A stretch of DNA of 64,000 nucleotides, taken from contig OX387182.1 in NCBI GenBank assembly GCA_947561395.2, positions 44,385,949-44,449,948 on the forward strand, given 5' to 3'. Below the pieces are notes generated by a model. It was not told the DNA's origin. It worked only from the letters and a program-made list of their open reading frames with translations, and searched no databases. A program made the position numbers and the translations under genes. This document shows positions 349 to 64,000 of this stretch, one piece after another. Within the stretch, counting starts at the first letter, position 1. Each line of letters begins with the position of its first letter. Source of the DNA: Buxus sempervirens (lineage: Eukaryota; Streptophyta; Magnoliopsida; Buxales; Buxaceae).

Positions 349-1481
349 TTACACCTTCCTCAGAAGTTTGAAAATTGGTTCACAAATAGCCGTGAGTTGT
401 TCTATGAACCGGCTTATGTACTGAATTCTTCCAAGAAAGCCCCTGACCTCCTTCTCTGTTCTGGGTGATGGCATTTCAATTATGGCCTTGGCTTTAGCCG
501 GGTCAATTTCAATTCCTCTTCTGCTCACTATAAATCCCAACAACTTTCCTGATGTAGCCCCAAAGACGCATTTAGCCGTAGACTGTACTTTCTGAGTCGA
601 TCAAACACTTTCTTTAGATTGATCAAGTGGTCCTCCTCTTTGCACGATTTGGCAATCATATCGTCCACGTAGACCTCCATCTCCTTATGGATCATGTCAT
701 GGAATAGTGCGGTCATGGCCCGCTGGTATATTGCCCCAGCGTTCTTAAGTCCAAACGGCATGACTGTATTGTGGAAGGTACCCCAAGGCGTGATAAATGC
801 TGTTTTCTCTTGGTCTTCCTTAGCCATTTTGATATGATTGTATCCTGAGAAACCATCCATGAACGAGAATAAGCTATGTACCATAGTATTGTCCACCAAG
901 ATGTCTATGTGTGGAAGCGGAAAATCATCCTTTGGGCTTGCCTTGTTCAGATCTCTGTAGTCCATGCACATTCTGACTTTCCCGTCCTTCTTTGGTACTG
1001 GTACTATGTTTGCGAGCCATTCGGGGTATGTGGATACTGCCAAAAATCCGGCTTGAAATTGCTTGACCACTTCGTCCTTGACCTTCAAGGTCCATTCATG
1101 TTTCAATCTTCTCAGCTTCTGCTTGATTGGCTTAACCCCTGGCAAAATTGGCAATTTGTGCACCACCATGTCAGTGTCCAACCCCAGCATGTCCTGATAT
1201 GACCAAGCAAACACATCCTTGTAATCTGCCAGAAATTGTGTCATTTCATTTTGCTGCACATCAGACAAGCATGCCCTGATTTTCACTATTTTTTGGTCCT
1301 CTTCGGTCCCAAGATTTATGGATATGGTCTCCTCAATATTAGGTTGGACCCCCTTTCCATGAAGTTCCAATTGGTATTCAATTTCTTTTGGAACGTCTTC
1401 TTCTTCAACCTCGGTCTCTTCTTCAATCCCCATGAGGTCAAAGTCGAGCTCAAGGTCGAAGTCATATTCAACCTGGTCCAA
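349..1481 (-). pseudogene. Reverse transcriptase domain of E1, frameshifted
   Basis: The minus-strand reading from 1481 gives an acidic spacer and then a Ty3/gypsy reverse transcriptase. Recognisable blocks are the DYRDLNKASPKDDFPLP region, the FMDGFSGYNHIKM block, the MPFGLKNAGAIYQR block and the catalytic YVDDM box. The first frame ends at 528. The next block (GFLGRIQYISRFI, RT thumb) continues in another frame from 543 to 349, so a small indel lies near 545-560. Homology stops after EPIFKLL at about 350; RNase H and integrase do not follow. In an active element this enzyme copies the RNA genome inside cytoplasmic virus-like particles. This copy is dead. Confidence 0.85.
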
Positions 1482-1868
1482 TTCGGTTTAATTATATGGT
1501 TCATAAGTGGTTGGGACCTTTTTGAAAAATTTAAATCTTCTAGAAAAAATAGAAAAATCTTTTTGGGTTTTTTGTGAGCCTTCTAAATATAATTCCCCTG
1601 AAGACGAAGGCTCATTAGGACCTTCAGGGAAATGGCATTCCACTATTGGAGTTTTTTTTTGAAAGCCGCATCAGTTTGCCACACAGACGCTGCTTCAAAG
1701 GTAAGGGGAGTTTCCTCCCAATTGTTCAATATAAAATTTTGGGGAGCAGAGGAAATGGGGAAAGCCTGCTCCTCAAGCCCAGCATCCGATGCCATCCGGG
1801 TGAGTACTGCCCTTTTCTGCTACGGGGCCCAATCCAGAAATGTCCTCCTTCGGAATCTTTACTGCAGC

Positions 1869-2438
1869 CTAGTCAATGAATGGTAGCTCGTTGTCACCAC
1901 CAGTTTTTTCGCCTTCAGTCATGGCGAAGAAAGCCCCAACATCCTCAGAGTAGTCCACCTGCTGCTCGGGCTGTGGCCCAGGCCCGTCCAAATTTCCAAG
2001 CATAGGAGATGGGTTATACGGTTGCAAGGTTAGAACAGAAGTCCTTTGATAAGGATTGATTTTGCGGTATGGGGGCTTGGATTGGTCCATGGGAGAAGAC
2101 AGTTGGATTATACATAAGGGTCTTGGAAAACTTTCCCTTAAGTGAGGGAATTTTCCTTTGCTTCTTTTCTCTCCTTCTTCATGCTTCATCCTCCTCCAAC
2201 CTCGGGGTTTAAATCCCAATCCTGCTGTAGGGATCAATTTCTTGGCCGTGATTGGCTCCACCATTCCCTGAAAATTGATTCCCAGGCCTTTCCCTGGGTG
2301 AAAGTGGTATTTCTCCATCATTTTCTTTATCATTTTCTCTGCAGTTGTTCCTTTTCTTTTTTCTTTTTTCTTTCTCACACCCCCCAGGTATGTCATTGAC
2401 CGTTTCGAATTAAAACGAGTGAAACGCAATATTGTCAA
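1869..2438 (-). pseudogene. G-patch-like segment of the E1 polyprotein
   Basis: A 189-residue open frame lies between protease and RT. Residues about 25-80 are basic and contain FHPGKGLGINFQGM and, later, TAGLGFKPRGWRR, the glycine-spaced pattern of G-patch motifs found between PR and RT in some plant Tat/Ogre elements. The tail ends in an acidic DNELPFID segment. About 390 bases with stops in all relevant frames separate it from the RT frame. In Ogre-type elements an intron is known near here, so the gap may be intron-derived or simply decayed; I cannot tell which. Confidence 0.6.
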
Positions 2439-2594
2439 CAGTCAGGTCTACATTTATCAAGGGTACATCAGGTGACACAATAGGAGGCACCAAATTCTCA
2501 GCTAGGACCGTTATTACCCTTTGCCTTCTAATGTATTTCACCCTTTGGTGGAGCGTGGATGGTATTGCCCTAGCCAAGTGTATCCACGGCCTCC

Positions 2595-5378: not shown

Positions 5379-5578
5379 GGCTCAGGCTTTGGATCTGGTC
5401 ACGAGAGCAATGATGGCAAATATGTGTACCTGAAGAAGGAAAAAGCAAAGAAGCATGTTAGCCTCCATTTAACTCGACTCACACCCCTATAAATGTAGAC
5501 AAGTAGGCTAGGTGAACACAAGTCTGTTTTTTTTTTTTCATTTTTCGTGTTTGTTTTTTTTTTTTTTTTATTTTGATT

Positions 5579-6655
5579 GGTTCTCGTGACCAAACAAAGG
5601 TTTTTTGGAATATTCTGAGGCTTCCAAATGTCCTAAAAAAATTTTTGTTCTGAATGGTTCTCGTGACCAAACAAAGGTTTTTGGAATATTCTGAGGCTTC
5701 CAAATGTCCTAAAAAAATTTTGATTTTGAATGGTTCTCATGACCAAACAAAGGTTTTTGGAATATTCTGAGGCTTCCAAATGTCCTGAAAATTTTTGATT
5801 TTGAATGGTTCTCGTGACCAAACAAAGGTTTTTGGAATATTCTGAGGCTTCCAAATGTCCTGAAAATTTTTGACTTTGAATGGTTCTCGTGACCAAACAA
5901 AGGTTTTTGGAATATTCTGAGGCTTCCAAATGTCCTGAAAATTTTTGACTTTGAGTGGTTCTCGTGACCAAACAAAGGTTTTTGGAATATTCTAAGGCTT
6001 CCAAATGTCCTGAAAATTTTTGACTTATAGTGGTTCTCGTGACCAAACAAAGGTTTTTGGAATATTTTGAGGCTTCCAAATGTCCTGAAAATTTTTGACT
6101 TTGAGTGGTTCTCGTGACAAAAAAAGGTTTTTGGAATATTCTGAGGCTTCCAAATGTCCTAAAAATTTTTGACTTTGAGTGGTTCTCGTGACCAAACAAA
6201 GGTTTTTGGAATATTCTGAGGCTTCCAAATGTCCTGAAAATTTTTGACTTTGAGTGGTTCTCGTGACCAAACAAAGGTTTTTGGAATATTCTAAGGCTTC
6301 CAAATGTCCTGAAAATTTTTGACTTATAGTGGTTCTCGTGACCAAACAAAGGTTTTTGGAATATTTTGAGGCTTCCAAATGTCCTGAAAATTTTTGACTT
6401 TGAGTGGTTCTCGTGACCAAAAAAGGTTTTTGGAATATTCTGAGGCTTCCAAATGTCCTAAAAATTTTTGACTTTGAGTGGTTCTCGTGACCAAACAAAG
6501 GTTTTTGGAATATTCTGAGGCTTCCAAATGTCCTAAAAATTTTTTTGATTTGATTGGAAAAAATAACCAACCAAAGGTTTCTTGGAATATTCTAGGGCTT
6601 CCAAATGTCCCACAAATGTTTTGATTTGATTGGAAAAAATATCCAACCAAAGGTT
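5579..6655. repeat. 75-bp tandem repeat with higher-order structure in the E1 leader
   Basis: About 13 regular copies of a unit starting GGTTCTCGTGACCAAAC (ttc at 5581, 5658, 5734, 5809, 5884, 5959, 6034, 6109, 6183, 6258, 6333, 6408, 6482) are spaced 74-77 bp apart, with two diverged copies to about 6655. Private variants recur every fourth copy (5959/6258, 6034/6333, 6109/6408), giving a higher-order period of about 299 bp. It lies directly upstream of gag. Because 75 is divisible by three, it yields long but spurious repetitive open frames. Confidence 0.95.
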
Positions 6656-6943: not shown

Positions 6944-7087
6944 TGTATCCGGCATAATATACCGGATAAGGCTATGGCTTACTGTGTCCGACATAATTAG
7001 CCGGATACACGCATAGGTCTTTGTAACCGATATTATATGCCGGATATGAATAAACTTCTTCTTAACCGACCTGAGTTGCCGGTTAAT
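6944..7087. repeat. Four 27-bp palindromes at 39-bp period (E1 leader)
   Basis: Imperfect palindromes start at 6944, 6983, 7022 and 7061, exactly 39 bp apart, each about 27 bp with 12-bp spacers. The outer half-sites resemble TGTATCCGAC and GTCGGATACA; the third and fourth copies drift to TGTAACCGAT and TTAACCGAC but stay self-complementary. The spacing is the same as in the LTR arrays, which shows a shared origin or constraint. Confidence 0.85.
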
Positions 7088-8650: not shown

Positions 8651-8828
8651 TTAAACACATTCATAGACACAATCAAGCAACATACCCATGCTTTTATCCA
8701 TGTGAATTTTTCTAATCATGCAAATCAGATTTGAGATTCAATATGCCCAAGTAAAATAAGAAAAATAGCAAGCACTCAAAAGTAAGAAAAAGCATGAACA
8801 AATACACAAAACGGCTTAAATCCACAAG

Positions 8829-8848
8829 TCCCCAGCAGAGTCGCCAGT
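8829..8848 (-). promoter_or_regulatory. tRNA primer-binding site of E1
   Basis: Directly after the LTR end (...CTCACA) the minus strand reads ACTGGCGACTCTGCTGGGGA. TGGCGACTCTGCTGGGGA would pair with a tRNA 3' end, including the terminal CCA. I do not assign the tRNA species. The position fits minus-strand DNA priming in LTR elements. Confidence 0.8.
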
Positions 8849-10262
8849 TGTGAGACATGGGAAAAATCACCGGGATGATTCTCCCTCCGTCAGCACATGG
8901 GCTCAACGTAAAAATGGGAGAGTCGCCACCATTCAGATTTTTAGGGTGTGAATGGACACCAAAAGATTAAAGATAAGCAAAAATGGCTAAAAGGCAAATT
9001 CTAGAGTAAAAATAACTCTACTTGAAAATCAAATCCAGAGATGGGTAAGGGGAGTAGATTATGAACGGGGGAAGGTGTTAGGTACCCCCCATTCATCCAC
9101 ACAAGGTGGTTGCCAAGTGTTTGTTCATGCAAAAAATAAGAAAGCTTGCTAAAATCATTGAAAACATTGAAAAAGGACAAGTGTATGATATCTTCACATG
9201 AAGATCCAAATGGATTCCAGATCCTCTCTTATGTCAATATCATTTCTGGAATATCATCTAAAGATGGAAATCCAAAGCAAAAGTTGCACAAAACCAAGTT
9301 GAGTTAAATCCGGAAAATTCGGTAAAAGCAAGAACCATTTGTCATGAAATCATTCAAATCCAATTTTAAATTAAATCAAACCAAATTTATTTGAAAGATT
9401 ATGGTAAATAATAGACTCATGCAAAATTTCAAGTAGATCCGGTTGAAAACCTAGGAGTTATACTCCTTCAAAATCTGATGCCGAAGATAATTAAAAGTGA
9501 TAAGTGGGCAACTTTGGAAAATTATCTAGAAAAATCTACTCCATATAAATCCATGAAATTTGGTGTGAGTGACGTCTGTATGGCCATATTTTAGATGAAA
9601 CTAGTCTCATACAAAAATTCATTCGGATGTGCCCTGGGTGGTCTCCCGAACAGGCCCCGAAGATCATAGATTTACCCAGAAAAGTGTTGTTGAACAGCTC
9701 TGAGTAAATCTATTGCTCACGACACAAATGGAGTCAAAAAATTATGAAACCAACTGGATTTGAAACTATACTTCCATAGGAAAATGTAGAAACAAGAATC
9801 ACTCGAATCGGACTTAAAACGAACACATGGTGCTCAGTCGAAGTGACAATTTCTGTATTCAGATCAGAACTGACCTATCAACTTCGACAGAGAGGTGTCA
9901 AAAATCCGCTTGATAGAAATTAATGAAATTTGGTAGACATAAACTAGATAGCCTCACCTTTCCTATGGTTCTAGAATCACTACAAAATTCATCCGGATGA
10001 TGAAGTTATGAGTGTCCGAAGTAGGGGTACAGTTGCTGTCAAGTTAGGCCTTCTTTGGAGAAAAACAATTCAAAACTGTGACAAAGTGTGTGCAATTCGT
10101 GCAAGATGAATACAAATCCTTTAAAAATCATTAAAAGACATTCCAGACTTGATTGGGGCTATTTATTTCAGATTTATCACAATAAATGCAATAAACCCGA
10201 AATGTGAGCCCATCCCGCCAAAACATGTGCTATGCATGTGTAAGTGTAGAAACCATTCCAAA

Positions 10263-10720
10263 ACATAGCATGCATTCATATTCATCAAAATAAGGTTCTA
10301 AAACAACCTAGGGTTCCGTTCCATTATCATTTCCCTTAGTTCTCTCTCCCCGTTAAACACGGTTCTTCAAGATAATCTTGGGGTACGTTGAATATGAAAG
10401 GGTTTTCATAGAATCACAAGGCTTATAGCATGCATTTAGATTAATAAAAAAAGGTTCTAGAACAACCTAGGGTTCCGTTCCATTATCGTTTCCCTTAGTT
10501 CTCTCTCCCCGTTAAACACGGTTCTTCAAGATAATCTTGGGGTACTTTGAATATGGAACGGTTTACATAAATTCAAAAGGCTTATTCAAGAAGGGTTCTA
10601 GCACTAGGATCAATCCCCAGTCTCGTTTCTCCTAGATCCCGCCTTCACGTTTTACGGCTAGGGGGAGTCTTGAGATACTTTGAGCCGGGGAAGGGTTTTC
10701 ATACAAACATCAAGGCCTTA
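10263..10720 (-). repeat. Tandem ~165-bp LTR module, two close and one diverged copy
   Basis: Segments from about 10263 and 10432 share long identical blocks (CCTAGGGTTCCGTTCCATTA, AACACGGTTCTTCAAGATAA, CTTGGGGTAC). A third diverged copy follows at about 10580-10720 with TTTTACGGCTAG and AGTCTTGAGATACTTTGAG. Equivalent modules occur twice in the 47293 LTR and twice in the solo LTR. They lie downstream of the TATA box, where R and the polyadenylation region are expected. Confidence 0.75.
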
Positions 10721-10918
10721 TTCTACAGAAAGGTAGAAGAAGAGATCTAGATCTAGAAATGTAAAAACAAGAATTGAAAAGAGGTTTTAGGCTTACCTGG
10801 GTTCTGGAAGCACTTCCGCAGCGGTTTCCCTCTTCACTCGGAGCTCTTCTTGGCAAAAGTTCTTGGCAAGAATTGTTGGCAAAAGAGTTAATGGCCATTT
10901 GCTTAAGGAGGAGCCTCC

Positions 10919-10926
10919 TATTTATA
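10919..10926 (-). promoter_or_regulatory. TATA box of the E1 LTR
   Basis: The minus strand reads TATAAATA within GCCTATAAATAGGAGG, at the U3 to R transition of the LTR. The same sequence is at the matching place in the 47293-49775 LTR (49356-49363), and a similar box is in the solo LTR (44234-44241). Conservation across three LTRs supports a core promoter. Confidence 0.75.
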
Positions 10927-11092
10927 GGCAAAGGCTAGGGTTAGGGTTGGTGAGAATGGTAGACACAACATAATGTCTATAGCGCACCAACCTTAACCCT
11001 AAGGCTATTTCCGAGATTTCCCTTCATTTAATGAAGGACATGATGGTAAAAGATGAAATCTCTCGAAAAACCCTAATTTTGAGCAAAACTTA

Positions 11093-11236
11093 TGTATCCG
11101 ACATATCAGGCCAGATACACGAGTGTCTTAATGTATCCGGCCTATGATGTCGGATACACTGAGGTCTGCTTGTATCCGGCATGTTCCATCGGATACAAAG
11201 AAGGACACTTGTATCCGACCTGAGTTTCCAGATACA
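11093..11236. repeat. Four 27-bp palindromes at 39-bp period (E1 LTR, U3)
   Basis: Copies start at 11093, 11132, 11171 and 11210. Each begins TGTATCCG(A/G)C and ends with a (C)GGATACA or CAGATACA half-site, with 12-bp spacers. The array lies in U3 about 170 bp upstream of the TATA box (minus-strand sense), an enhancer-like position. Confidence 0.95.
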
Positions 11237-11327
11237 AGGAAAAAACTCATTTTCTCAAATTCTGTGGTGGCCTTCAAGGAGATAATGATTATTGATCATT
11301 TTAACAGTGCAATTTGGGGTGTCTACA

Positions 11328-29314: not shown

Positions 29315-29910
29315 GGATTCCATCTGCCCATGCTCAAAACGTGGGTTTTTCTTCCTAATTAAATATGGCCCTCGTTCGCCGTCCTCGTGCACCATGAGGT
29401 GTGCCGATCCATATACTTTTTTTTTTGGGTAACAGTGCCGATCTATAGACACGAACCGCTGTGGTGTTTTTTGCAATTAATCTAGGCAATTCCTTCCCTT
29501 GGATGTCGTCAAAGATTAAGTCCATTACAAACGCTAATGGTGTTAAGTAAATACACAAGTCCTTACTTACACAAGAACGGCAGATTTGATTTATAAACCT
29601 TTCCAATTGTTTTTTTTTATTAGATTTATTATACATAGAAACAAAATGATAATTAATTAGACTTTTCTATTCAACAAATAACTCAAAATTAGATAATCAA
29701 TACTTTTTTTTCTTCTGATATTGATGAGAGATTGTAATCTCTTTAATTAACCAAAATAATCAAAATTTCATTTAAATGTACACGTTTCTAATAGGGCTAC
29801 AACTGTTTGGACCGGGTTGACTTCAATCCGAGACTAAGCTGAATTTGTGAGATTCAGCTCAAACTGAATCGAACCCGATCTTCTCAAACCGTAAACGGAA
29901 CCAAACAAAA

Positions 29911-30236
29911 ATGTTAAAACCTAAAACCAAACCATACACCCAACCCAAGTTGCACATCAAATTTGGCTCAGTTCGGACCAGGCCAATTTCACAAGCTACT
30001 TTCAATGAATAAACAAAATTTCCGCAATAGGAAAGTTATGTTTACAAAATACAAAAACCAAAAAAGAAAGAAAATGTTAAAACCTAAAACCAAACCATAC
30101 ACCCACCCAAGTTGCACATCAAATTTGGCTCAGTTCGGACCAGGCCAATTTCACAAGCTACTTTCAATGAATAAACAAAATTTCCGCAATAGGAAAGTTA
30201 TGTTTACAAAATACAAAAACCAAAAAAGAAAGAAAA
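29911..30236. repeat. 163-bp near-perfect tandem duplication in U1
   Basis: 29911-30073 and 30074-30236 are identical except for one missing base (CACCCAACCC versus CACCCACCC). U2 has a single copy (about 38419-38580). The duplication therefore happened in U1 alone and recently. It lies downstream of the DUF247 stop codon. Confidence 0.95.
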
Positions 30237-30339
30237 TATGCTTATAGAGAACCGTCCATATTTCTTCTCTCATATCTTCTCCCTCTTCCAGGTGGTCATT
30301 ACATTACCATGATCACTGGAAGCCTTCCTGAAATTTTAT

Positions 30340-31788
30340 TCACCTTCGGGGGAATACAGTAAAGTAAGTTTGTGTAAGACTTGTACCAAGAAAAATAACT
30401 GCAACAATTAAAGCAATAAGAGTCCAGGGGCTACGGAAGTAGTTATGCCACATTTCAGCTAACCACAAACTACTCTTGCTCTTGTATCGCCTTTCAATGT
30501 CTCGTTTTACCATGCAGTATGCAGTATAGGAGGGAATCAGGTTCTTACTAATGTGATTGAAGAGATCAGCCACTTGGTCATCGCTGCCTAGAGAATGATT
30601 TAAAACCCCACTTTTTCTGAGTATTTTGACATCGTCATGATGATCAATGAGCGAATCCATGAAGCAGATGAAGTCGGTAAACCTGTTGTCCTCTGGATCA
30701 TCCTCCTTGGACATCTCATAGGCCAGCGTATTCAGAAAAATGGCCTTGGTTGAGGTGTCAATGGTGATCTCAGGGAGTGTTAGATATGCGGAGATTAGGT
30801 TAGAGCTGAAACGGATGTCAGCTGGATAAGCAAAAGATTTTACCTTGAACCTGACCCCAACTGACTGGAGCTCTTTCGCTGAACGAAATGATGTCTCTTC
30901 CAACCAATCTTCCAACCAATCATACTCATCAGACTTACCAGGACGTAGTTTTGCACCTTTCTTGGGGCCTAGATACATCTTCCGAAATATGTCGAGGAGA
31001 TGAAGGTGATCTTCCGTTTCTTCTGGATCTATGGAAATCGAAGGAATAAAATCTACTTGATTTTCATACATTTTGCGAATGAATTTGTAGTAGAAAACAT
31101 GTGAAGATGGTAGGTTACCAGGTACAAAAACTAGTAAGGCATTGATTACAACTGAAGGAAGCTGGTTCTCCACCATGAGCAAGTCTCGAGCTATAAGAGT
31201 TATAGAATGAGAGCTCATCATATGTAACTTTTTAATTTGATCAGATTTATATCTAAAGGAGCGCATGAACTCGAGAAGGAAGCAACCATCCAAAAACATA
31301 ATCCTTGCCAATTGTTTGTTGTCATTGAACGCAGCCTTATCAGGGCAATTAACATAGTAATTCCTTGCTTCTTCGGAGACCTCTCGTACTTTGTTGAAGA
31401 TTTCATCGACGCTCTTTCCAGATATTTTGATAAAATCATTAGCCAGCACAATCTTGAGGTACTCTCCTTCCTCGAGACCAGCCTTTCCATGGTGATATAG
31501 ACCAATGGAAACAACCTGAGGATCATAACATGTTTTGTCAGACTCCACCTCCCGCAACACAGGTAGAACTTTTGGTATTTTAGCCCTTTGAGGAAGACGG
31601 GTACTGGGATCCCACTTAACAATGGACTTTAACCGCTCTGGGATAATAGTTTGGCTGGGATCCCACTGAGCGATGGACTCTAACAACTGTTGCACCTCGA
31701 TATTTTGCTCTGTGGCTTCACTTGTATGTACTTCACCGGCATTCGCCATCGATGCATGAACCCTATTTGGACAATTTTTGTTTGACAT
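30340..31788 (-). CDS. DUF247 (UPF0481) membrane-anchored protein
   Basis: A single uninterrupted frame of 482 residues, usual for this plant family. Recognisable blocks: KIPKVLPVLREV near residue 70, YDPQVVSIGLYHHGK near 92, RIMFLDGCFLLEFMRSF near 163, a LLMVENQLPSVVINALL segment near 205, a GVLNHSLGSDDQVADLF segment near 395 and a C-terminal hydrophobic helix (about residues 455-475, WTLIALIVAVIFLGTSL) that would anchor it to a membrane. The family's biochemical role is unknown; in grasses two DUF247 genes are the pollen-side self-incompatibility factors, which says nothing certain about this one. The ATG at 31788 is kept in the U2 copy. A 5'-UTR intron is likely upstream. It is the only DUF247 copy here without damage. 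Confidence 0.92.
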   Translation of the reverse strand: MSNKNCPNRVHASMANAGEVHTSEATEQNIEVQQLLESIAQWDPSQTIIPERLKSIVKWDPSTRLPQRAKIPKVLPVLREVESDKTCYDPQVVSIGLYHHGKAGLEEGEYLKIVLANDFIKISGKSVDEIFNKVREVSEEARNYYVNCPDKAAFNDNKQLARIMFLDGCFLLEFMRSFRYKSDQIKKLHMMSSHSITLIARDLLMVENQLPSVVINALLVFVPGNLPSSHVFYYKFIRKMYENQVDFIPSISIDPEETEDHLHLLDIFRKMYLGPKKGAKLRPGKSDEYDWLEDWLEETSFRSAKELQSVGVRFKVKSFAYPADIRFSSNLISAYLTLPEITIDTSTKAIFLNTLAYEMSKEDDPEDNRFTDFICFMDSLIDHHDDVKILRKSGVLNHSLGSDDQVADLFNHISKNLIPSYTAYCMVKRDIERRYKSKSSLWLAEMWHNYFRSPWTLIALIVAVIFLGTSLTQTYFTVFPRR

Positions 31789-33369
31789 TTATACACATTA
31801 GGTGTTTGAACTTTAAAATTAAATAATAAAAAAAAAAAAAAGGAAAAGAAGAATCTAAATTAAGACTTCTAAAATTTTAAATGTGCATGATTGATTACTT
31901 TCAACGACAGCAATAACAGTCTCGCCCTTTGTACATAATATAATACTGAGTATTAATTGACTCAAAAAAGACTGATAAGAGATCTGGGCTTTCTGAACTC
32001 ATGAAGTTAATTTGAGAAAGCTAGCTAATAATAGAGTTGCAGTAGTGTTAAAGTCGATCAAAACAATAAACTCATGTAGAGCTAACGTAAGGAAATGAGG
32101 ATGGAAAGAAGCTTAATTACCTTAGAAATCCGGCCAAAAGCGCTGCTGATTAATCGTTCAAGTGATCAACCAATTAAACTCTATATTAAGCATTGCAAGA
32201 TTCAAGCAAACTTGTGTTCTCTTCCTTTGTTCGTCAACAAGATGGTGCGGTGGTATTCCTGACGTTTCGTCTACAGTCCTTCTGGAAGGAAGTAGGAACC
32301 ATAAGCCAGTAATACGTCTCCGGCATCAATCCTGATGCCTAACGTTAAAAAAGGGAGGACCCATTTAAGTCATGCTGAGCCTTCCTTTTCTTCTTCTATC
32401 CATTGCTAAAGGGTCTAAAGGCTAATCCTCATGCTTTTTTATGGATTTTTTAATTGGTGGGTCCTACATGCATTGTGCATAATAGTTTCCTTGAATTGAC
32501 TATACTAAAAATCTGAGTCTAGATATTAATCTTTCACGTACCAGCGTGCACGCCCATATTTGAATCTTATTTAAGGAGAAATCCTCAAATATAATAGTGT
32601 CCTTGACATCAGTAGGATAATTGCTTAACCCATGCACGCCCAACTCTATTTCAAAATGTAACATGATCATTGATCACCTGCTATATATGCCACACCACCA
32701 AACCTAATAATTACAATTAATTAATCAGATTTAAAATGATTACTTAAATAACCTTGCCTTTATAAAATAAAATCTAGCCGTTGTATCTTCATCCAAAGCT
32801 CTGGATTAACTCTCCTCATTAATTCCTATATATTAAGCACCTTATATCATCAATAATTCTCCTAAACTCTCTACACTAAATTAAATTAATATGAATTCAA
32901 AAATTTAAGGCATTACTCCTGCTTTTTTTTCTGCTACCAGAAAGTAGCGCTAGAAAGCAGTAGATGAACCTGTGTTTCAAACAGCCAACAAAACGCTGTC
33001 TTGGGTCACAAGTTACGATGCTTACGCTTTTGAGGAATAAATAATGTAAAAGGAAAAGATATGAAGGGCATCGAAGTAAAAATATAACAAGAGTGAATTA
33101 CAAAAAACAGAGGGGCAATCTGGTCCGTAGGAAGAGTGGGACGAAAATAGTGGAACTGCGCCTTTTAAGTACAGATTTGTAGATGTTCTTGGCAGTGAGA
33201 GGTGATTTTATTCAGAGAAAACCTACCCTTTAATGCTTGAATCTCTGTAAACTTCTCTTCTCATAAAATATTATTTGAGTGATACTCAAATATGGGGTGA
33301 GCATTAAATAATTTGAAAAAAGATCACCTAAAAAAAGAGAAAGGAAATAGAAAGTTTGGTTTAATGACA
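31789..33369. other. DUF247 upstream region and U1/U2 junction
   Basis: Besides the putative leader intron there is no gene here. A TTAATATAGAG word (minus strand, about 32185) may serve as a TATA box. The end of unit U1 is near 33295, and the short stretch 33296-33369 is unique between the units. Confidence 0.4.
31811..32120 (-). other. Probable 5'-UTR intron of the DUF247 gene
   Basis: On the minus strand the sequence ATTTCTAAG/GTAATT at 32121/32120 is a good donor, and TTAATTTTAAAG/TTC at 31811/31810 is a good T-rich acceptor, 22 bases before the ATG. Both sites are preserved in the U2 duplicate (about 40148 and 40452). A 5'-UTR intron is common in DUF247 genes. Confidence 0.5.
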
Positions 33370-37604: not shown

Positions 37605-38707
37605 TGCTGCTATATGTATTATTATATCTAGAAGGTAGAGAGGACAACTCAATTGAATAGATTAATTAGATGCACCGCGTTAGATGGATCGCGCCAGAGA
37701 AATTTATATCAAAATTTTTTTTGGTAGTACATTTCTAGCATTCTTCATCAGTTACTTTATCAATCATAATAAATGAATGACCAGACGTAGAAATGGGATT
37801 GTCAAAAGTAACAGAGGGTGACTGACTAAAGATGCCACTCTATTGGCGCAATTGGCGAAACGAGATTTCTTTTGAATTACATGGGATTCCATCTGCCCAT
37901 GCTCAAAACGTGGGCTTTTCTTCCTGATTAAATGTGGCGTGTGCCCATCTATAGACACGAACCGCTGTGGTGTTTTTTGCAATTAATCTAGGCAATTCAT
38001 TCCGTTGGATGTCGTCAAAGATTAAGTCCATTACAAATGCTAATGGTGTTAAGTAAATACACAAGTCCTTTACTTACAAAAGAATGGCAGATTTGATTTA
38101 TAAACCTTTCCAATTACTTTTTTTTATTAGATTTATTATGGATAGAAACAAAATGATAATTAATTAGACTTTTCTATTCAACAAATAACTCAAAATTAGA
38201 TAATCCGTACTTTTTTTTCTTCTAATATTGATAAAAGATTGTAATCTCTTTAATTAACCAAAATAATCAAAATTTCATTTAAATGTACACGTTTCTAATA
38301 GGGCTACAACTGTTTGGACCGGGTTGACTTCAATCAAAGACCAAGCTGAATTTGTGAGATTCAGCTCAAACTGAATCGAACCCGATCTTCTCAAACCGTA
38401 AACCTAACCCAACAAAAATGTTAAAACCTAAAACCAAACCATGCACCCAACCCAAATTGTACATCAAATTTGGTTCAGTTCGGACTGGGCCAATTTCACA
38501 AGCTACTTTCAATGAACAAACAAAATTTCCACAATAGAAAAGTTATGTTTACAAAATACAAAAACTAAAAAAGAAAGAAAATATGCTTATAGAGAACCCT
38601 CCATATTTCTTCTTCTCCATTACCATGATCACTAACATTATTAATTAAGGTTTTCATGTACAAAGATAAATCTTCCATATTCGCTCGAAGCCTTCCTGAA
38701 ATTTTAT

Positions 38708-45617: not shown

Positions 45618-45929
45618 GCTGGCATTCAGAATAAGAAAAATGAGAACACGTGATCGGGGAAGGACTCTCAATTTTTAGTGCCAATAACCGTTGGCAATTT
45701 AAATCTTGCAGTAAGAGCGACCATCCAGGGGTTCTAGTGCATCCTATCAATCGGAAATAGATACAAACATGGCAAGATAAATTGATAAGCTCTAGGCACC
45801 AATCCACCTTAACCAAATTCAATATTGGAATGGTATCAAAGACCGCGGATTCATCATCCCAATCAATTATCAAACATTTCAATTACCAAACACCCAGAAG
45901 AAGCAATGATCTTCTAATCATGGCAGCAA
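45618..45929. other. Spacer between solo LTR and LTR B
   Basis: About 310 bases with no gene or repeat that I recognise. It begins with the second GCTGG target-site copy. It contains no primer-binding site, so neither neighbouring LTR is a 5' LTR whose element lies here. Confidence 0.4.
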
Positions 45930-47292: not shown

Positions 47293-49355
47293 TGTGAGAC
47301 ATGGAGGAAAAATCAATCCAGTGACTTTACGGTCATCATATGGGATTCTAAAAAATGGGAGAGTTGCCACCATTCTTTTTAGGTGTGAATGGACACCAAA
47401 ATCATCAAATAAGCACAAAGGCAAATTAGAGTAAAAATAACTCTACTTGAAAATAAAATCTAGAGATGGTAAGGGGATTAGATCATGAATGGGGGAAGGT
47501 GTTAAGCACCCCCATTCACCCACACAAGGTGGTTGCCAAGTGTTGTTCATGCTCAAAATAACGAACGCTTGCTAAAATAATCAAAAAGTCTTGAAAAAGT
47601 TTAAACACATGTATGATCCCTCCACATGAGAAGTCCAATGAATCTTACACTTTTTTTTATGGAAGTATCACTTCTAGGACATCACTATTAATTGGAAATC
47701 AAAGCAAAACTTGAATACAAACAAGTTAAGACAAATCCGGAATATTCGATAAAAGATGGAGCCATTTGACCATAAATTATTCAAATCAAATTTAAATTGA
47801 ATCAAACCAAATCCATTTGAAAGATTAAAATAGAAGACTCACAACAATTTTCAGTTAAATCTGGTTAAAATCTTAAGAGTTATGCTCATCTGAAATCTGT
47901 TGTTGGAAATCGACAAAAGTGACAAGCAGTCACCTTTGGAAATTCATTTGGAAAAATTGGCTCCATATAAATCCGTGAAAATTTGCATGAGTGAAGTATG
48001 TAGTGCCATATTTCAAATGAAATAGGCCTCACACCAAACTCTATTCGAATGTGACTTGTGTGACTTCACGAACATGCCTAGGGGATCACAGATCAGCACA
48101 TAATTGTGCAATAGGGCAGTTGTGAGTAAATCAGTCACATAGGACACAAATGAAATCAAAAACTTATGAAACCAATTGGATTTGAAAATAGACTCATAAG
48201 GGAAAGCACCAAAATCAAAATCACTCAAATCAGACTTAAAATTAACAGATGGTGCTCATTCACAGTGATAGGTTCAGCAATCTGGCTTGAACTGACCTAT
48301 CAACTTTGATTGAATGGTATCAAAAATCCGCTCAATAAAAATTGATGAAATTTTACAGACAAGAACTAGACAGCCTCATCTTCCACATGTCTTTGGAATC
48401 ACTCCAAAATTCATCCGGACGATGAAGTTATGAGTGTCCGAAGTTAGGGTACAGATGCTGTCCAGTTTTGCCTTTTTTAAATAAAATCAACCCAAAACAG
48501 TGATCAAGTGTGTGTAATCCGTGCAATCCAAATCAAAATCATTTCAAAAGATATTGAGAAACCTCCAAGAGGAAATAGGGCACGAAATTGACTCACCATT
48601 CTCTTCGATTAGAGAGAATATACCAAAAACCCTAAAATGGTGCAAAAATGCCCAAAACCGAGAGGTTAGACCATGAGGTCTTCAATACTCAAAGATAACT
48701 TGTTTGAAATCATTTTGAAAATTATTGAGATATCCCAGAACTGCTTAGGGCCATTTATTTCAGATCTATCACAGTGAATACGATAGATCCGAAATACAAG
48801 TCGATTCCAACGAAACGAGTGCTATGTGTGCAAGTGTAAAAATTGCCTCAATACATCATCACATATAGCATTCAAAGAATATCAATAAAATGGAGGTTCT
48901 CTAACTAGGGTTCCATTCCCATTCTCATTTCCCTTAGTTCTTTCTTCCCGTTTTTATGGTTTCGAGATAGTCTTGAGGTACTTTGAGCAGGGAATGGGTT
49001 TTCACACAACAAAAGGCCATTCAAGAGGGTTCTATGACTAAGGATCAATTCTCAGTCTCATTTCCCCTAGATCCCTCTCCATGTTTTACGGCTAGAGGGA
49101 GTCTCGAGGTACTTTGAGTAGGGAAAGGGGTTGCATACACAAAGAGTAAGCCATTATTCTACAGAAAGTTAGAAGAAGAGAACTAACCCTAGAAATTAAA
49201 GATAGAAAATTAAAAGAAGGTTAAGGCTTACCTAGGTTCTGGAAGCAATGAGGCAGAGGTTTCCCTTCTTCACTCGGATCTCTTCAATCTCCAGCTTCTA
49301 GCTCTCAAAAACTCTTCTAAAAAATTCTTGGCCATTTGCTTGAGGAGGAGCCTCC

Positions 49356-49363
49356 TATTTATA
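49356..49363 (-). promoter_or_regulatory. TATA box of the element C LTR
   Basis: The minus strand reads TATAAATA in the same GCCTATAAATAGGAGG context as the E1 LTR. In a 3' LTR it could drive read-out transcription leftward into LTR B. Confidence 0.7.
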
Positions 49364-49519
49364 GGCAAAGGCTAGGGAGGGGGAACCCTAATGGTAGACC
49401 AAGGAATTGTCTAAAATCCCCCACTTAACCCTAAGGTTAGAGATTTCCACTCCTTAAACAAAGGATATGATGGTAAAAAGTGAAAACTTTCGGAAAACCC
49501 TAATTTTGAGCAAAAACCT

Positions 49520-49663
49520 TGTATCCGACAACTCAGGTCGGATACAAGTGAATATTTTTGTATCCGACATATGTCGTCGGATACAATAATACTTGCTTGT
49601 ATCCGACGACTTCTGTCAGATATAAAAACTCCCTTTTGTATCTGATCACTTGTGTCCGATACA
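49520..49663. repeat. Four 27-bp palindromes at 39-bp period (element C LTR)
   Basis: Copies start at 49520, 49559, 49598 and 49637, exactly 39 bp apart, each 27 bp. The first, TGTATCCGAC...GTCGGATACA, has two perfect 10-bp arms. The number, spacing and position in U3 equal those in the E1 LTR, although the palindrome centres and the 12-bp spacers differ. Confidence 0.95.
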
Positions 49664-49775
49664 AGGGAAAATGTTCCAATTCGAAATTTTGCATTGGCTA
49701 CAAGAAAACAAACTATTTTTTAATGTTTTGGCCAATTATTCATTATTTTCTCAGCACAATTTTGGGGTGTCTACA

Positions 49776-50341: not shown

Positions 50342-50407
50342 TGTATCCGATGTATTTGGTCGGATAAGAGAAGCTTCATTTGTATCCGACGTAAATTGTC
50401 GGATACA
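50342..50407. repeat. Two 27-bp palindromes at 39-bp spacing, left of the CACTA
   Basis: Starts at 50342 and 50381. The second is TGTATCCGAC...GTCGGATACA, with near-perfect arms. They follow a CT-rich tract. Together with the pair at 63924 they bracket the antisense gene of element C (CACTA excluded). Confidence 0.9.
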
Positions 50408-50459
50408 TTAAGTTATATGAACCGCGCACGACCGCGACCTTTCCCACACTACAAAAAAG

Positions 50460-50935
50460 GCGACTTTTACCGGCGGTAGCATCCCGCCGGTAAAAGTGAA
50501 ATTACCGCCGTTAAAGCTTTCACGGCGGTAAACCCTACCGCCGCTTAATATCGAGCCGCTAAACGAATCAGCGACGCCTACAACGGCGGTAGCAAAATTA
50601 CCGCCGCTATTTCGGAGAAATAGCCGGCGGGAATTTAACGGCAGTAATTACCGCCGTTAAATTACCTTTTTACCGGCGGGTATTACCGCCGCTTAATAAG
50701 AAATTTTTAACGGCGGTAACATTTACCGCCGCGAATACCTTCCATTAGCGGCGGTAGTTACCGCCGTTAAACTCCTCACATGCTTCTATATGCCTTTAGC
50801 GGCGGTAAGTACCGCCGCTAATAATTTGTATTAGTAAATGCGACTCAGGTTTTAAGCGGCGGTAATTACCGCCACTTTAAACTTTTGACTTTTAGCGGCG
50901 GTAATTACCGCCGCTAAAAGCCATTACCTGCATAT
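50460..50935. repeat. Left subterminal GCGGTAA array of the CACTA
   Basis: Inverted GGCGGTAA and TTACCGCC words form short palindromes such as GCGGCGGTAATTACCGCC with spacings of roughly 40-60 bp. In En/Spm-like elements subterminal repeats are the binding sites of the small element-encoded protein; that role is inferred here. Confidence 0.85.
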
Positions 50936-59978: not shown

Positions 59979-61019
59979 CCATTTCTCTTCTTCTCTGATT
60001 GATAAGAGCGGACACAAACTCTTCTTCCCCGATGAGAGCTCGATCTCTCCTTCTTCTCAGGCGACTTCCGGCGACTTCTCTAAGCTCCGGCGACTCTTTG
60101 CGAACTCCGGCGATCATCCAGCTGCTGCTAAGTCCAAGCCCTAGTTTGACGCTTTGGGTTTTCGTTTAAACCCTTGCCTCCAAGCGATTTGCTTGCTGCC
60201 TGTTGCCGTCGCCCAAGCTTTGGTGACTTCTTCCAATTTTCGACAGCCTAGGCAGCTCTTGCTACACCTTGCTGATCCCATTTCACTGTTGCAATCCATT
60301 GTTCTTGCTGCTCAATAATATTGGTAGGCCAATCCAACAGAACATTTTTTTTCCCTTTTTTCTTTTTTTTTTGTTGAATCCCCATGGTTTGACTGATTGC
60401 CTACTGTAGAAATTGTTGATTGTAGCTTTGATAATCTTGCGAACTCATGTTCTCAAATTGATAGTATCGAAAGCATCGGGTTGCCTGCCGGTGATGATTT
60501 CCAACTTAAATTGCTGATTGCCTACTTTTTAGTTTGTATGCTTCTAATATAGCTCATATTGAATTGCCATGGTGAAGGAAAACTTCCACTGATCACTTCC
60601 CATTACCGTGTTGTCTGTTGTTCACTAGTGATATCTCTTGCCTGCAAGCATTTGATTTGATTGAATTTTAATGACTCCATTGCATTGCATTTGCTGTTTT
60701 GTATTGCTATTTTGTGCATTTTGGCCATCTTGGTAATTTTTTTTTTTGATTCCTAAATCCAGCTATGCCTTTTAACATCAACCGTGCTTTGACTTGAATC
60801 CTTCACTTGCCAAAGAACTTTGAATTGAAACAGAGAACAAAAGTAAGATAAAATTGATAGACCCTCAAGACACAATTCATGATAGCTTTGAAAAAACAAA
60901 AAAACCATGTAAGATTCCTGATGAATTTGAACTGAAAACCTAGACTACAAGCAAGGTGAGATTTCTAATGAATTTGAACTGAAACCTAGACCGAAAGCAA
61001 GGTAAGATTCCTGATAAAC
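59979..61019 (+). other. Element C interior upstream of the antisense gene
   Basis: Begins with the CACTA target copy CCA, then CT-rich DNA and CTCCGGCGA words (60060-60115) resembling a 5' leader. At 60909-61010 two units of about 50 bp (GAATTTGAACTGAAA(A)CCTAGAC...AGCAAGGT) are repeated in tandem. It probably contains the promoter and first exon(s) of the plus-strand gene, but I cannot place a start codon. Confidence 0.35.
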
Positions 61020-63710
61020 CTAGACCTAATCAGCCTCCTTCTTCTCGAGCCAGGATTGAGTCCGATCAGAGTGCTACCCTGTCTGATCCACTGGATGATT
61101 CCAGAGAGAGCTTGAGAGAGGGCTCTGCTGAGGTAGGCCTCCCAATTTTCCTTTCTCTTCCTCTTTTTTCTCTTTAAACAAACTGTTACAATATCTCTTT
61201 TGAATTTTAGCCCGTTGTTGCTCCTGTTCGAGGTCGGGGTAGAGGCCGAGAGAGAGGTGGAGGTAGAGTTGGAGAGAGGGGCCGAGGCCGAGCTAGAGAG
61301 AGGGGCCGAGGCCGGGCCGGAGCTTCAGGTCAGGAGGATATTGCTTCAGCTTTCTGTCTAGGGATCTCAAAGGGGTTGAAAGCGTCCGTTCATGATACGG
61401 AGCTCCGTAGTGGCTTGGATCGCCACCCCTCTATGTGCATCCATGCTGATGTTCCACTCCTGTATCCTCCTTCCCATCTACAAGGCAGTTGGGGGAAGTT
61501 CAGTGAGTTGGTTCAGATGCTTTCTCTGGCACACAGGCTCAAGTTCAATAGGTGCCCGCCTTGATTATTTTCTCCATATCCCTTCATTCCGAGCTGACCG
61601 TCCCCTTATCTTTGCTATGATGGAGCGATACTTCTCAGAGACGCAGTCCTTTCATCTGCCGGACATTGAGCTTGGGATCCGTCCTTCTGATTTTGTCATG
61701 ACCACCGACATTCCTCTGGTGGGGCGAACTATAGAGTTGGATCGTCCTTCAGCTGTGGACATCGGCCTTCTCTTGGGATATGAGGACTTGCCTGACAACG
61801 CTTGGGATGGGAGGAGCGGTTGTATCTCTATCAGCTAGCTGCGGCAGAGCCTTACTCGGCACTTCGATGGGAGACATGAGACCATTGCTGAGGAGGATGC
61901 GGCTTTTGCTCCTATCTTCTGGCATGTGTTCTTGTTGATGCTCAGGAGCTGTTTTTTCCAGGAGGACACGACCAGTGTTAGTCCTCTCTTTTTGGATGCT
62001 CTGAGAGATCTTCGCTAGAACAGGCAGTTAGCATGGGGTCGGCTTATATATGGGACCATCCTGGCCGGATTATGCTTAGTGGTTCGAGGTTTGGCCGCTC
62101 CGAGGGGTGATGGAGTTAGCTGCCGGTTCTTCTGGCAGATCCTGCAGGTACTATATACATCTGCTTTGTCTTATCCACCGAAACTTTATCTTCTTTATTC
62201 TTGACCACTTTCTCTTTTGCCAAGTATTTATGTATACATATATGACTTACTTCCGCCCATCCCCCGTGCTTGGTGATGCGAAGTTCCCCGTTGCCATATG
62301 GTGGTCTGCCTTGGTCAGAGATGCAGACAGGAGTCAGCCTCGTACTGCTCAGGTTCACTTGGATCATGCTCGTTGACATGATATAAAATTCTTCATTTGT
62401 CTCTTTTTTCTGTACCTTGTTTGTATCTGACATCATTCTTCTTCTTTGCAGCTCTTGTTGGCACACTTTGACGATGTGGATATCGGGGCTGGTCGTGAGA
62501 TGATAGTACAGGACGCTTTTGACCGAGACCTCCGACGCCAGCCCTACCAGTGCTTCCTTGGGAGGCTTGGTAGGGTGATGTATCTAGGAGAGTGCCAGTA
62601 CTATCAGCACATAGGTGTACCTTGCATTCCAGTTCCTTCTCCTCCTGTGAGTCCCGACACCCTCCTCCCCGGGTTTGATATTGACCAGTTTGATCAGTAT
62701 CAGGATGCGGAGGGGCTTACAGTAGCTGGGGACTATGACGAGTGGATCAGGAGGGTATCCATTGGGTGCCTAATGGATCGACTCACTCGCGCTGGAGTGA
62801 CAGAGATCGGTGGGATCTACATCCGAGTTCACGACGATACTGTAAGTCACCTTCTTTTATCTTATCTCCTTTACTTCAACATTTATGATTTTAATCCCGT
62901 TCTTATTGGCAGGTAGATGAGCTGAATGCCTTGCGGGATCAGTTCCAGAGTCAGCGGGCCGCAGTCGATGGTATGATTGCCAAGCATGATGCAACTATGG
63001 CCCAGGAAGATGCCCGGATCAAAGAGCTAGAGGCTTTGGTTGCTGAGCTTAGGGCTAGATAGGTATTTAGTTCTTCACAACTCCATTCCTTTCACTTCTA
63101 TGTTTCCCAACCGTTTTGATATGAACCGTTTGTCTTTTGCAGGATCCGGTCCCGATCATGATGCCACAGTTGAGTCAAACCCTCCTGTTTCTAGTCCATC
63201 TCCTGTCCAGACAGCTGATCCCGAGGATGCCCCGATCACTGTTCCTGACCCAATTGCATCTCCTGTTCCTGACCCGGTCGCTATTGTTACTCCTGCAGAT
63301 CCTGCCAGCATCTCATCTCCTATGGTGGCTCCTGCTCCTGCTCTTGACATCCCTGGTAAGTTTTCTTCAGTTTCACCTCTTTGGTTCATTTTGGTACTTC
63401 AATTTCTGACTGCATTTCCATTAATCCAGTTATTTCTGCTCTTGATCCTCCTTCCGCTGCTGCCGAGACTTCTGGAGCTGCGAGAGTCGAGACCGTTGTG
63501 GCCGAGGACCCAATTGAGCCTGAGGCAGCTGTCCTTCCCGCCAAGCCTGCTCCTACCGAGCCAGAGGTTTCTTCTTCTGATTCTGTTCCTACAGGCCCAC
63601 CTCCTGACAATTCGGGCTACTGCTTTGAGTATCAGGTTCAATCCTATCTGGGCCGGCGACCACGCTACCTTGCCGAGCGTATCATCTCCCATGTCTTTAC
63701 GCGGGGATGA
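61020..63710 (+). pseudogene. Plant mobile domain gene, antisense in element C, decayed
   Basis: Exon-like blocks: about 61020-61132; 61211-62147; a piece near 62230-62380; 62452-62841 (130 open codons); 62913-63062; then a proline/alanine-rich tail from about 63140 to a stop at 63708-63710. The second block encodes an arginine-glycine-rich stretch (RGRGRGRERGGGR) and then the plant mobile domain, with RADRPLIFAMMERYFSETQS, FHLPDIELGIRPSDF and LLLGYEDLPDN. 62913-63062 is a coiled coil ending in a stop. Damage: a frame change at about 61545-61562 and TAG at 61836-61838 and 62016-62018. Tat-lineage elements are known to carry antisense extra ORFs between integrase and the 3' LTR, some with this domain; position and strand fit. 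Its function is unknown. Confidence 0.7.
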
Positions 63711-64000
63711 TCCTGCACAGGAGCAGTAGATTAGGACTTTTGGATGTTTACATTCCCTTTGTACAAAAGAGACTTGTGTATATATGAAAAAAATTTTTAT
63801 TCATTCTCTATTGTTCTGCTCTCTTTTTTTTCTCATTTTTATGCAATTGAAACTTGTATACAAGTAAAATAGGTAAAAATTTTGGATTTTTCTTCCTTTT
63901 CTCTTTTTTTTGCTCTTTTCCTTTGTATCCGATATATCAGATTGGATACATTAACATGTTTTTATATCCGATGAGAAATGTCGGATACAAACAAGTTATT
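63711..64000. other. 3' flank of the antisense gene
   Basis: T-rich sequence with AAAAAAATTTTTATTC and CT-rich runs, plausible for a 3' UTR and polyadenylation region, followed by the palindrome pair. No coding sequence. Confidence 0.45.
63924..63989. repeat. Two 27-bp palindromes at 39-bp spacing, right of the antisense gene
   Basis: Starts at 63924 and 63963, 39 bp apart, ending GGATACA in both. They follow a CT-rich tract, as the pair at 50342 does. The array may go on past the window edge. Confidence 0.9.

What the first reader, a model, noticed from the sequence alone, without database searches (positions are those of the whole stretch)
11093..11236. Palindrome array with an exact 39-bp period, shared by five places of one retrotransposon lineage
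Seen directly: 27-bp imperfect palindromes (TGTATCCGAC / GTCGGATACA arms) with 12-bp spacers start at 11093, 11132, 11171, 11210; at 49520, 49559, 49598, 49637; at 6944, 6983, 7022, 7061; at 50342, 50381; and at 63924, 63963. Every step is exactly 39 bp although centres and spacers have diverged, so length and symmetry are conserved more than sequence. Inference: an array of dimer-binding sites (host factor or element-encoded protein) or RNA/DNA hairpins acting as enhancer, insulator or anti-silencing element. I know of no described element of this form.
Basis: partly seen in the sequence, partly recalled or inferred. Interest (0 to 1): 0.82.

Follow-up and report, generated by a model that had tools for sequence, protein, structure and literature searches.

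The report
Promoter operator arrays in plant retrotransposons
A family of large plant jumping genes carries rigidly spaced sets of mirror-image DNA sites next to its promoters, which looks like a built-in control circuit that one paired protein could use to switch the element on or off.

Summary
In detail: all 16 palindromes lie where stated, in exact 39-bp steps. The window's own plant genome was searchable. There the 7-bp centre is exact in 3954 of 4030 sites and the 12-bp spacer in 1971 of 2006, although centres and spacers are the fastest-changing letters. The arrays belong to Ogre/Tat-like Ty3 LTR retrotransposons and stand at fixed places: in LTR U3, 164-166 bp before TATA (19 of 21 copies); 11 bp before the TATA box of an antisense plant-mobile-domain (PMD) gene (7 of 7); before a second antisense PMD gene (TATA-like box at 6-8 bp in 7 of 15); and between PBS and gag, without TATA. 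Genome-wide, 3676 of 4457 half-sites followed within 30 bp by TATAAA have it at 10-11 bp. Half-site variants agree between arrays of one element (r=0.93, 16 elements). Best reading: dimer-binding operators coupling sense and antisense promoters to one regulator, possibly the element's own PMD protein. Binding is inferred, not shown. RNA hairpins are disfavoured. I found no description in my paper searches.

The parts
11093..11236 (.). U3 array of LTR1: four 27-bp palindromes at 39-bp pitch
8849..11327 (-). LTR1 of element 1 (TGTAGACACC...TCTCACA), read on the minus strand
   Evidence: ends read by eye; homology to LTR2
10919..10926 (-). TATA box of LTR1, 166 bp from the array edge
8827..8846 (-). 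putative primer binding site TGGCGACTCTGCTGGGGACT, two bases after LTR1
   Evidence: Ogre-type identity is recalled, tRNA match not tested
6944..7087 (.). internal 5' array (4 units) between PBS and gag of element 1; no TATA seen
   Evidence: 1912 candidate places genome-wide, 40 scored; no TATA
528..1487 (-). reverse transcriptase of element 1 (PF00078)
1869..2441 (-). G-patch segment of element 1 polyprotein region
47293..49775 (-). LTR2 (3' LTR of element 2; PPT-like sequence adjoins at 49776, by eye)
49520..49663 (.). U3 array of LTR2 (4 units); TATA 156 bp away (about 49358-49363)
50342..50407 (.). gene A promoter array (2 units), 567-632 bp upstream of the 3' LTR
   Evidence: equivalent arrays
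50414..50419 (+). TATA-like box (TATATG) of antisense gene A, 6 bp after the last palindrome
59979..63780 (+). remains of antisense gene A (plant mobile domain gene, with introns and an apparent frameshift), cut off from its promoter by a CACTA insertion; limits by eye
   Evidence: relatives with the domain above cut-off
61380..61838 (+). open segment of gene A with weak PMD match (E 0.0014, below Pfam cut-off)
63924..63989 (.). array downstream of gene A, by position and homology the promoter array of antisense gene B (gene B lies beyond the window); 2 units seen
   Evidence: (L027)

Best explanation
The arrays are promoter operators of an Ogre/Tat-like LTR retrotransposon. Each 27-bp palindrome is a site for a symmetric protein dimer (half-site about TGTATCCGRY). 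Two to five sites stand at a rigid 39-bp pitch so that neighbouring dimers can touch. The same module stands upstream of the sense LTR promoter and directly upstream of the promoters of two antisense genes, and a further copy stands ahead of gag. One trans-acting factor would thus set the transcription units of the element together. Shown: anatomy, rigid lengths, TATA distances (strong for gene B, U3 and the genome-wide count; partial for gene A), coding selection on both antisense genes. Inferred: that a protein binds, that neighbours cooperate, and whether it activates or represses. Inferred more weakly (about 0.35): that the factor is an element-encoded PMD protein (A or B), giving autoregulation.
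For: Rigid lengths: spacer 12 in 1971 of 2006, centre 7 in 3954 of 4030, reversed-pattern controls 0; in 81 sequences 338 of 342 centres and 238 of 245 spacers. Mean pairwise difference is 0.234 in centres and 0.268 in spacers against 0.116 and 0.091 in arms. Promoter position: half-site to TATAAA 10-11 bp in 3676 of 4457 places with 0-30 allowed, reversed-pattern controls 9 and 329; gene B type TATA at 11 bp in 7 of 7; other lineages 10-11 bp in 6 of 7; U3 TATA at 164-166 bp in 19 of 21. Arm variants agree between U3 and other arrays of one element, r=0.93 and 0.83, n=16. Half-site dialects are kept on both arms: T/T 3954, G/G 703, mixed 88 at position 5. The antisense genes are PMD and DUF7745/PMD, dN/dS 0.07-0.16 for A (14 of 15 pairs) and 0.05-0.18 for B (10 of 10). 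In print, PMD proteins are needed for genes sharing a promoter motif (PMC7156037 passages).
Against: No binding, expression or methylation data. No DNA-binding domain was recognised in the PMD proteins. The gene A array has a TATA match at 6-8 bp in only 7 of 15 copies (an earlier 4 of 5 was a partial sample). The PBS-gag array has no TATA box in the 6 copies read. U3 flanks (0.144, 0.106) are about as conserved as the arms. Indel depletion in the array is modest (6 indels to 143 minor alleles against 24 to 211 in flanks, p=0.03). Concordance of variants within elements is confounded by descent and possible conversion between arrays. Some elements carry a TGTAGCC array 1.1-1.7 kb from a TGTATCC array, which a single factor does not explain; these pairs were not. 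The published Arabidopsis PMD-linked motif (CATGCAGTTT, PMC9899485 figure legend) is different. Genome counts are copies of repeats, not independent events.
Confidence: 0.64

Rival explanations
1. Host transcription-factor sites: the element uses binding sites of an ordinary plant dimeric factor, which drives or restricts its promoters; no element-encoded reader. (A narrower form of the best explanation, so the odds overlap.)
For: Same anatomy and TATA distances. The TGTAGCC variant contains GCCGAC, like the recalled DRE/CRT core.
Against: Half-site dialects and within-element concordance suggest a reader that changes with the element. The main form TCCGAC and the GGC/GGT forms do not match the recalled RCCGAC core.
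Confidence: 0.3
2. Anti-silencing or chromatin-opening arrays: an element-encoded protein binds the dispersed arrays and removes silencing marks across the element, as VANC does for VANDAL. (Can overlap with the best explanation.)
For: Arrays are spread over non-coding parts of the element; VANC targets are tandem motifs in non-coding DNA (PMC5735166 passages). A review proposes TE-encoded PMD proteins as counter-silencers (PMC8616336 passage).
Against: VANC motifs are arrayed in one orientation and their repeats are gained and lost rapidly; these are palindromic, of exact length, and many are locked to TATA boxes.
Confidence: 0.2
3. RNA or DNA hairpins: the palindromes act as folded structures in transcripts or during reverse transcription.
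For: Arms change together at positions 2, 3, 5, 9, 10 and in dialects; terminal units of some arrays keep pairing with new sequence.
Against: No clear excess of G.T over A.C mismatches (58 to 74 in sense-oriented units; 148 to 125 in all units). A hairpin needs neither a 12-bp spacer nor a fixed distance to a downstream TATA box. Two inverted centres (L063, L138) suggest that template switching can make matched arms without selection.
Confidence: 0.08
4. Neutral tandem duplication with little time to diverge.
For: Tandem 39-bp units; apparent recent unit duplication in L030 and L140.
Against: Unit positions are recognisable across diverged copies, and centres and spacers are the most diverged letters yet keep exact length.
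Confidence: 0.03

Closest known systems
VANDAL/VANC anti-silencing system of Arabidopsis (PMC5735166, passages seen)
   Same: Element-encoded protein reads short repeated motifs spread over non-coding parts of its own element.
   Different: VANC21 motif is 9 bp, arrayed in one orientation, repeats vary rapidly; here 27-bp palindromes at exact pitch, many locked to TATA boxes; the element is an LTR retrotransposon; reader not known.
Foamy virus Tas/Bel-1 (LTR plus internal promoter) and HTLV Tax-responsive repeats (recalled, no call)
   Same: One element-encoded regulator acts on the LTR and on a second promoter, or through repeated sites in U3.
   Different: Plant Ty3 element; candidate regulators would be antisense genes; sites are rigid palindrome arrays; no binding shown.
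Antisense ORFs and tandem repeats of Retand/Ogre elements (PMC11963269 and PMC6317226, passages seen)
   Same: Same superclade, antisense extra genes, PMD in 57% of Ogre (PMC6317226), repeats near the 3' LTR; a regulatory role is suggested there for antisense TRP28 proteins.
   Different: [quoted passage not shown] the word palindrome occurs there only in the reference list.
Arabidopsis MAIN/MAIL1 PMD proteins and the DOWN motif (PMC7156037, PMC9899485, passages seen)
   Same: PMD proteins linked to a promoter motif.
   Different: DOWN (CATGCAGTTT) differs and is not palindromic; direct binding was untested there as well.
Tnt1/Tto1-type U3 tandem enhancer boxes (recalled, no call)
   Same: Repeated activator sites in plant LTR U3.
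   Different: As recalled, only in the LTR, with host factors, no antisense promoters, no rigid palindromic pitch.

Membership tests
Ogre/Tat Ty3 LTR retrotransposon | Ty3-type reverse transcriptase | tested here: inconclusive
   RVT_1 (PF00078) E 1.9e-26 and a G-patch segment; placement in Ty3/Tat by a tree was not done
Ogre/Tat Ty3 LTR retrotransposon | long LTRs with TG...CA ends and tRNA-Arg-type PBS | tested here: inconclusive
   LTR1 of 2479 bp, ends and PBS-like sequence seen; match to a tRNA-Arg not tested; tRNA-Arg PBS of Ogre in PMC9289625 passage
Ogre/Tat Ty3 LTR retrotransposon | extra ORF with plant mobile domain (57% of Ogre in PMC6317226) | tested here: met
   PF10536 E 1.2e-12 (gene A) and 8.4e-13 (gene B) in L116; the window's own copy is below cut-off
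Ogre/Tat Ty3 LTR retrotransposon | second RNase H between RH and INT | not tested
   not searched
VANDAL/VANC-type anti-silencing target | motif arrays in non-coding regions across the element | tested here: met
VANDAL/VANC-type anti-silencing target | motifs arrayed in one orientation | tested here: not met
   palindromes; unit number does vary (2-5)
VANDAL/VANC-type anti-silencing target | element-encoded protein binds the motif and lowers methylation | not testable with these tools
   no binding or methylation data
promoter-proximal operator or upstream activating site | fixed short distance to a core promoter | tested here: met
   gene B type 7 of 7, other lineages 6 of 7, genome 3676 of 4457, U3 19 of 21 at a longer distance; gene A only 7 of 15; PBS-gag array none of 6
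promoter-proximal operator or upstream activating site | sequence-specific protein binding changes transcription | not testable with these tools
   experiment needed
structured RNA hairpin | wobble pairs tolerated on the transcribed strand | tested here: not met
   G.T 58 against A.C 74 in sense-oriented U3 units
structured RNA hairpin | compensatory arm changes | tested here: met
   positions 2, 3, 5, 9, 10; also expected of homodimer half-sites or template switching

The most novel reading that the evidence does not exclude
The plant mobile domain is a sequence-specific, dimeric DNA-reading domain. Ogre-type retrotransposons encode two such proteins from antisense genes and use them, through rigid palindrome arrays, as a self-contained regulatory circuit over the LTR and both antisense promoters. 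The two half-site dialects (TGTATCC, TGTAGCC) would be the specificities of different PMD proteins.
Probability: 0.33. Interest if true: 0.92.

Novelty: new variant of a known kind. Interest (0 to 1): 0.78.

Why it matters
The function of the plant mobile domain is called unknown in the papers seen (PMC9289625, PMC8616336 passages), although domesticated PMD proteins are needed for plant development and transposon silencing. A cis-element that is repeated thousands of times, often sits at fixed distances from TATA boxes and co-varies within elements gives a concrete target to test whether PMD proteins read DNA. It would also show that a plant LTR retrotransposon can couple its sense LTR promoter to its own antisense genes, as complex retroviruses couple their promoters by other means, and it gives a ready probe for finding and classifying such elements.

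Tried and rejected
RNA hairpin reading: tested by mismatch asymmetry and covariation, disfavoured but not excluded. Covariation was first judged to be limited to position 9; the wider set and genome counts corrected this. Gene A TATA linkage was first put at 4 of 5; a recount over all 15 gene A arrays at hand gave 7 of 15, the others having TTTTATTAAG (5), or other letters (3). L005, first taken as a gene A array, has the gene B type leader. A first dN/dS (A 0.04-0.24, B 0.08-0.19) included out-of-frame letters in L107 and L112 and codons before the presumed start of gene B; one search repeats it on clean parts. Link to the Arabidopsis DOWN motif: rejected, the letters differ. Presence elsewhere: exact palindrome 0 in viral contigs, 1 in prokaryote contigs, a lone site in a Nitrospirae bin, which by my own estimate is within chance. 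Solved structures for the gene B segment: 0 matches. The ten-letter arms occur in 120 papers; the 15 listed are on unrelated subjects by title (listing only).

Limits: unit scans ask for arm similarity, so strongly decayed units are missed. In one search, 3 of 44 rows (L071, L072, L021) were left out of distances and minor-allele counts but kept for indel events; five ragged end insertions were left out of the flank indel count. In one search, 21 U3 arrays in the longer loci were measured, not all at hand. In one search the 16 elements were picked by hand from those with two or more arrays; L129 and the type C elements with a TGTAGCC array were not included, and a stricter score dropped a weak extra unit in two elements. 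Shuffles do not allow for relatedness. The whole-genome tool lists only the first places; counts are its totals.

Full report
WHAT WAS CLAIMED AND WHETHER IT IS THERE. All 16 palindromes stand at the stated starts, each with 10-bp arms and a 7-bp centre, and each step within an array is 39 bp. Three other, isolated weak 27-mers in the 64-kb window reach the same arm score. The arm with up to one mismatch occurs 22 times against 1.98 expected, 0 of 100 shuffles reaching that.

WHAT THE SURROUNDINGS ARE. Reverse transcriptase (PF00078, 1.9e-26) and a G-patch segment lie on the minus strand at 528-2441. LTR1 spans 8849-11327 and LTR2 47293-49775, both read on the minus strand, 71-75% alike in matched pieces. 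A PBS-like sequence follows LTR1. Element 1 therefore carries the U3 array (11093) and an array between PBS and gag (6944). Element 2 carries the U3 array (49520), an array about 600 bp upstream of its 3' LTR (50342) and one at the window edge (63924). Between the last two lie a CACTA transposon (50447-59978; tnp2 PF02992 9.6e-59) and the remains of an antisense gene whose open segment weakly matches the plant mobile domain (0.0014, below the cut-off). So the five places are four kinds of position in two Ogre/Tat-like elements. Filing under Ogre rests on the PMD gene and on recalled LTR and PBS features; no tree was made.

THE WHOLE GENOME SHOWS RIGID LENGTHS. Exact arms facing each other with 2-30 bases between occur at 2006 places; 1971 have exactly 12. 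Exact arms with a centre of 0-30 occur at 4030 places; 3954 have exactly 7. Reversed-pattern controls are 0. These are copies of repeats, not independent events. In 81 sequences read in full, 338 of 342 centres are 7 (others 2 and 6) and 238 of 245 spacers are 12 (others 10, 11, 13, and two gaps of 37 where a unit is damaged). In the aligned U3 region of 41 of 44 copies the mean pairwise difference is 0.116 and 0.091 in arms, 0.234 in centres, 0.268 in spacers, 0.144 and 0.106 in the flanks. Length is thus kept where sequence changes fastest. Against this, the flanks are about as conserved as the arms, and the excess of indels in flanks over the array is moderate (24 to 211 minor alleles against 6 to 143, Fisher p=0.03).

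THE ARRAYS ARE TIED TO PROMOTERS. Loci L115, L116 and L117 show the order, in antisense direction from the 3' LTR: U3 array, 2-unit array, antisense gene A, 4-unit array, antisense gene B. In L116, gene A has PMD (1.2e-12) and gene B DUF7745 (3.1e-21) plus PMD (8.4e-13), all above Pfam cut-offs. Of 35 stretches taken just upstream of LTRs, 10 end in the PPT-like sequence of a 3' LTR, and 8 of these 10 carry the 2-unit array at about -500 to -660 (misses L086, L101). The last palindrome of the gene B type array stands 11 bp before TATAAA in 7 of 7 copies (L113-L117, L027, L005), with the presumed start codon at 128-129 bp in the 4 measured. The gene A array stands 6-8 bp before a TATA match in 7 of 15 copies; five others have TTTTATTAAG there and three have other letters. 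Arrays of other lineages (type C, flanks not matching those of the window arrays) have TATAAA at 10-11 bp in 6 of 7. Genome-wide, CGGATACA followed by TATAAA within 0-30 bases occurs at 4457 places; 3676 have 10 or 11 bases between, with varied intervening letters in the listed places. The reversed-pattern controls are 329 and 9. In U3, the array stands 164-166 bp before TATAAA in 19 of 21 copies; LTR2 has 156 and L022 has none. The PBS-gag array, with 1912 candidate places of which 40 were scored, has no TATA box in the six copies read, the window's included.

SYMMETRY AND SPECIFICITY. Among 302 distinct units from 137 sequences, deviations at arm positions 2, 3, 5, 9 and 10 are matched on both arms more often than shuffles give; positions 1, 4, 6, 7 and 8 show no such excess. 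At position 5, palindromes with otherwise exact arms number 3954 T/T, 703 G/G and, by subtraction from 4745, 88 mixed; independence would give about 1260 mixed (my arithmetic). Variants at positions 9 and 10 agree between the U3 array and the other arrays of the same element (r=0.93 and 0.83, 16 elements; 0 and 1 of 20000 permutations reach this). Outer units of U3 arrays often carry an inward CTG extension (unit 4 left arm in 24 of 27 distinct forms, unit 1 right arm in 13 of 21), which suggests a partial dyad of the whole array, though L115, L117 and the PBS-gag array depart from it. G.T and A.C mismatches number 58 and 74 in sense-oriented U3 units, 148 and 125 in all units as read, which gives no sign of selection for an RNA hairpin. 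Two inverted centres (L063, L138) suggest that template switching occurs in these palindromes and may itself create matched arms; covariation alone is therefore not proof of function.

THE ANTISENSE GENES ARE SELECTED. On clean stretches of 150 codons, pairwise dN/dS is 0.07-0.16 for gene A (14 of 15 pairs, one not computable, the four others with L114 having dS above 1) and 0.05-0.18 for gene B (10 of 10 pairs). A search with the window segment finds 3530 candidate places, of which 150 were scored; about 126 of these list no stop inside the match (counted by eye).

BEST EXPLANATION. The arrays are operators for a symmetric DNA-binding dimer. Several dimers stand side by side at a fixed pitch, next to promoters of the antisense genes and at a fixed distance from the LTR TATA box. 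One factor would thus set the sense and antisense units together. I put this at 0.64. That the factor is PMD A or B is a further inference at about 0.35. It rests on agreement of sites within elements, on selection for both genes, and on the published dependence of motif-bearing promoters on PMD proteins (PMC7156037 passages). Direct binding by PMD was untested in those papers (PMC9899485 passages). Activator or repressor cannot be told apart from sequence; sites just upstream of TATA fit an activator slightly better.

WHAT IS NOT EXPLAINED. Some elements carry an array with TGTAGCC arms 1.1-1.7 kb from an array with TGTATCC arms. Terminal units of some internal arrays have changed up to three arm positions on both sides. 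Type C arrays are in two parts with a 104-bp step between them in 6 of 7 copies (103 in L036) and 2-5 plus 2-3 units. LTR3 of the window has no array.

NOVELTY. I searched for Ogre with palindromes (13 of 13 listed), PMD with retrotransposons (12 of 23), PMD with motifs (10 of 12), the arm letters (15 of 120), U3 palindromic repeats (12 of 40) and antisense ORFs with promoters (4 of 4). Listings and the passages seen gave no description of such arrays. Only open-licence papers are held, and no paper was read whole. Neumann 2019 (PMC6317226, passages) gives PMD in 57% of Ogre elements; the Retand paper of 2025 (PMC11963269, passages) notes antisense TRP28 genes and variable tandem repeats of unknown function.

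Noticed in passing
window 50447-59978: CACTA transposon (CACTACAAAAAA...TTTTTTGTAGTG) with a 3-bp duplication CCA (by eye), inserted between the promoter array and the body of antisense gene A; tnp2, DUF4216 and a below-cut-off Transposase_24 segment inside.
   Followed up: partly
window 43332-47293: Two further LTR copies in opposite orientation (about 87% alike), partly deleted; LTR3 has no array although relatives (e.g. L016) keep one after a 540-bp extra segment.
   Followed up: partly
L142 (C1:8926000-8931500): An array with TATA stands about 2 kb upstream of an S-locus receptor-kinase-like gene segment; the same promoter letters recur at 8865087, 8926114 and 8987141, each 61,027 bp apart, suggesting a tandem 61-kb duplication.
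   Followed up: no
L115 and L117: Gene A exons differ strongly (dS 0.43) while gene B exons are nearly the same (dS 0.05), suggesting exchange of modules between elements.
   Followed up: no
window 5564-6633: 75-bp tandem repeats (about 14 copies) between the internal array and gag of element 1.
   Followed up: no
window 59382-59739: 61-bp tandem repeats with inverted GCGGCGGTAA-type motifs inside the CACTA element.
   Followed up: no
window 29435-33295 and 37941-41819: Duplicated gene region; open frames on the minus strand (482 and 270 aa) look like a DUF247-type plant gene by eye, not tested.
   Followed up: no
L084 4768-4794: One exact copy of the palindrome, alone, in a Nitrospirae bin; probably chance.
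   Followed up: yes
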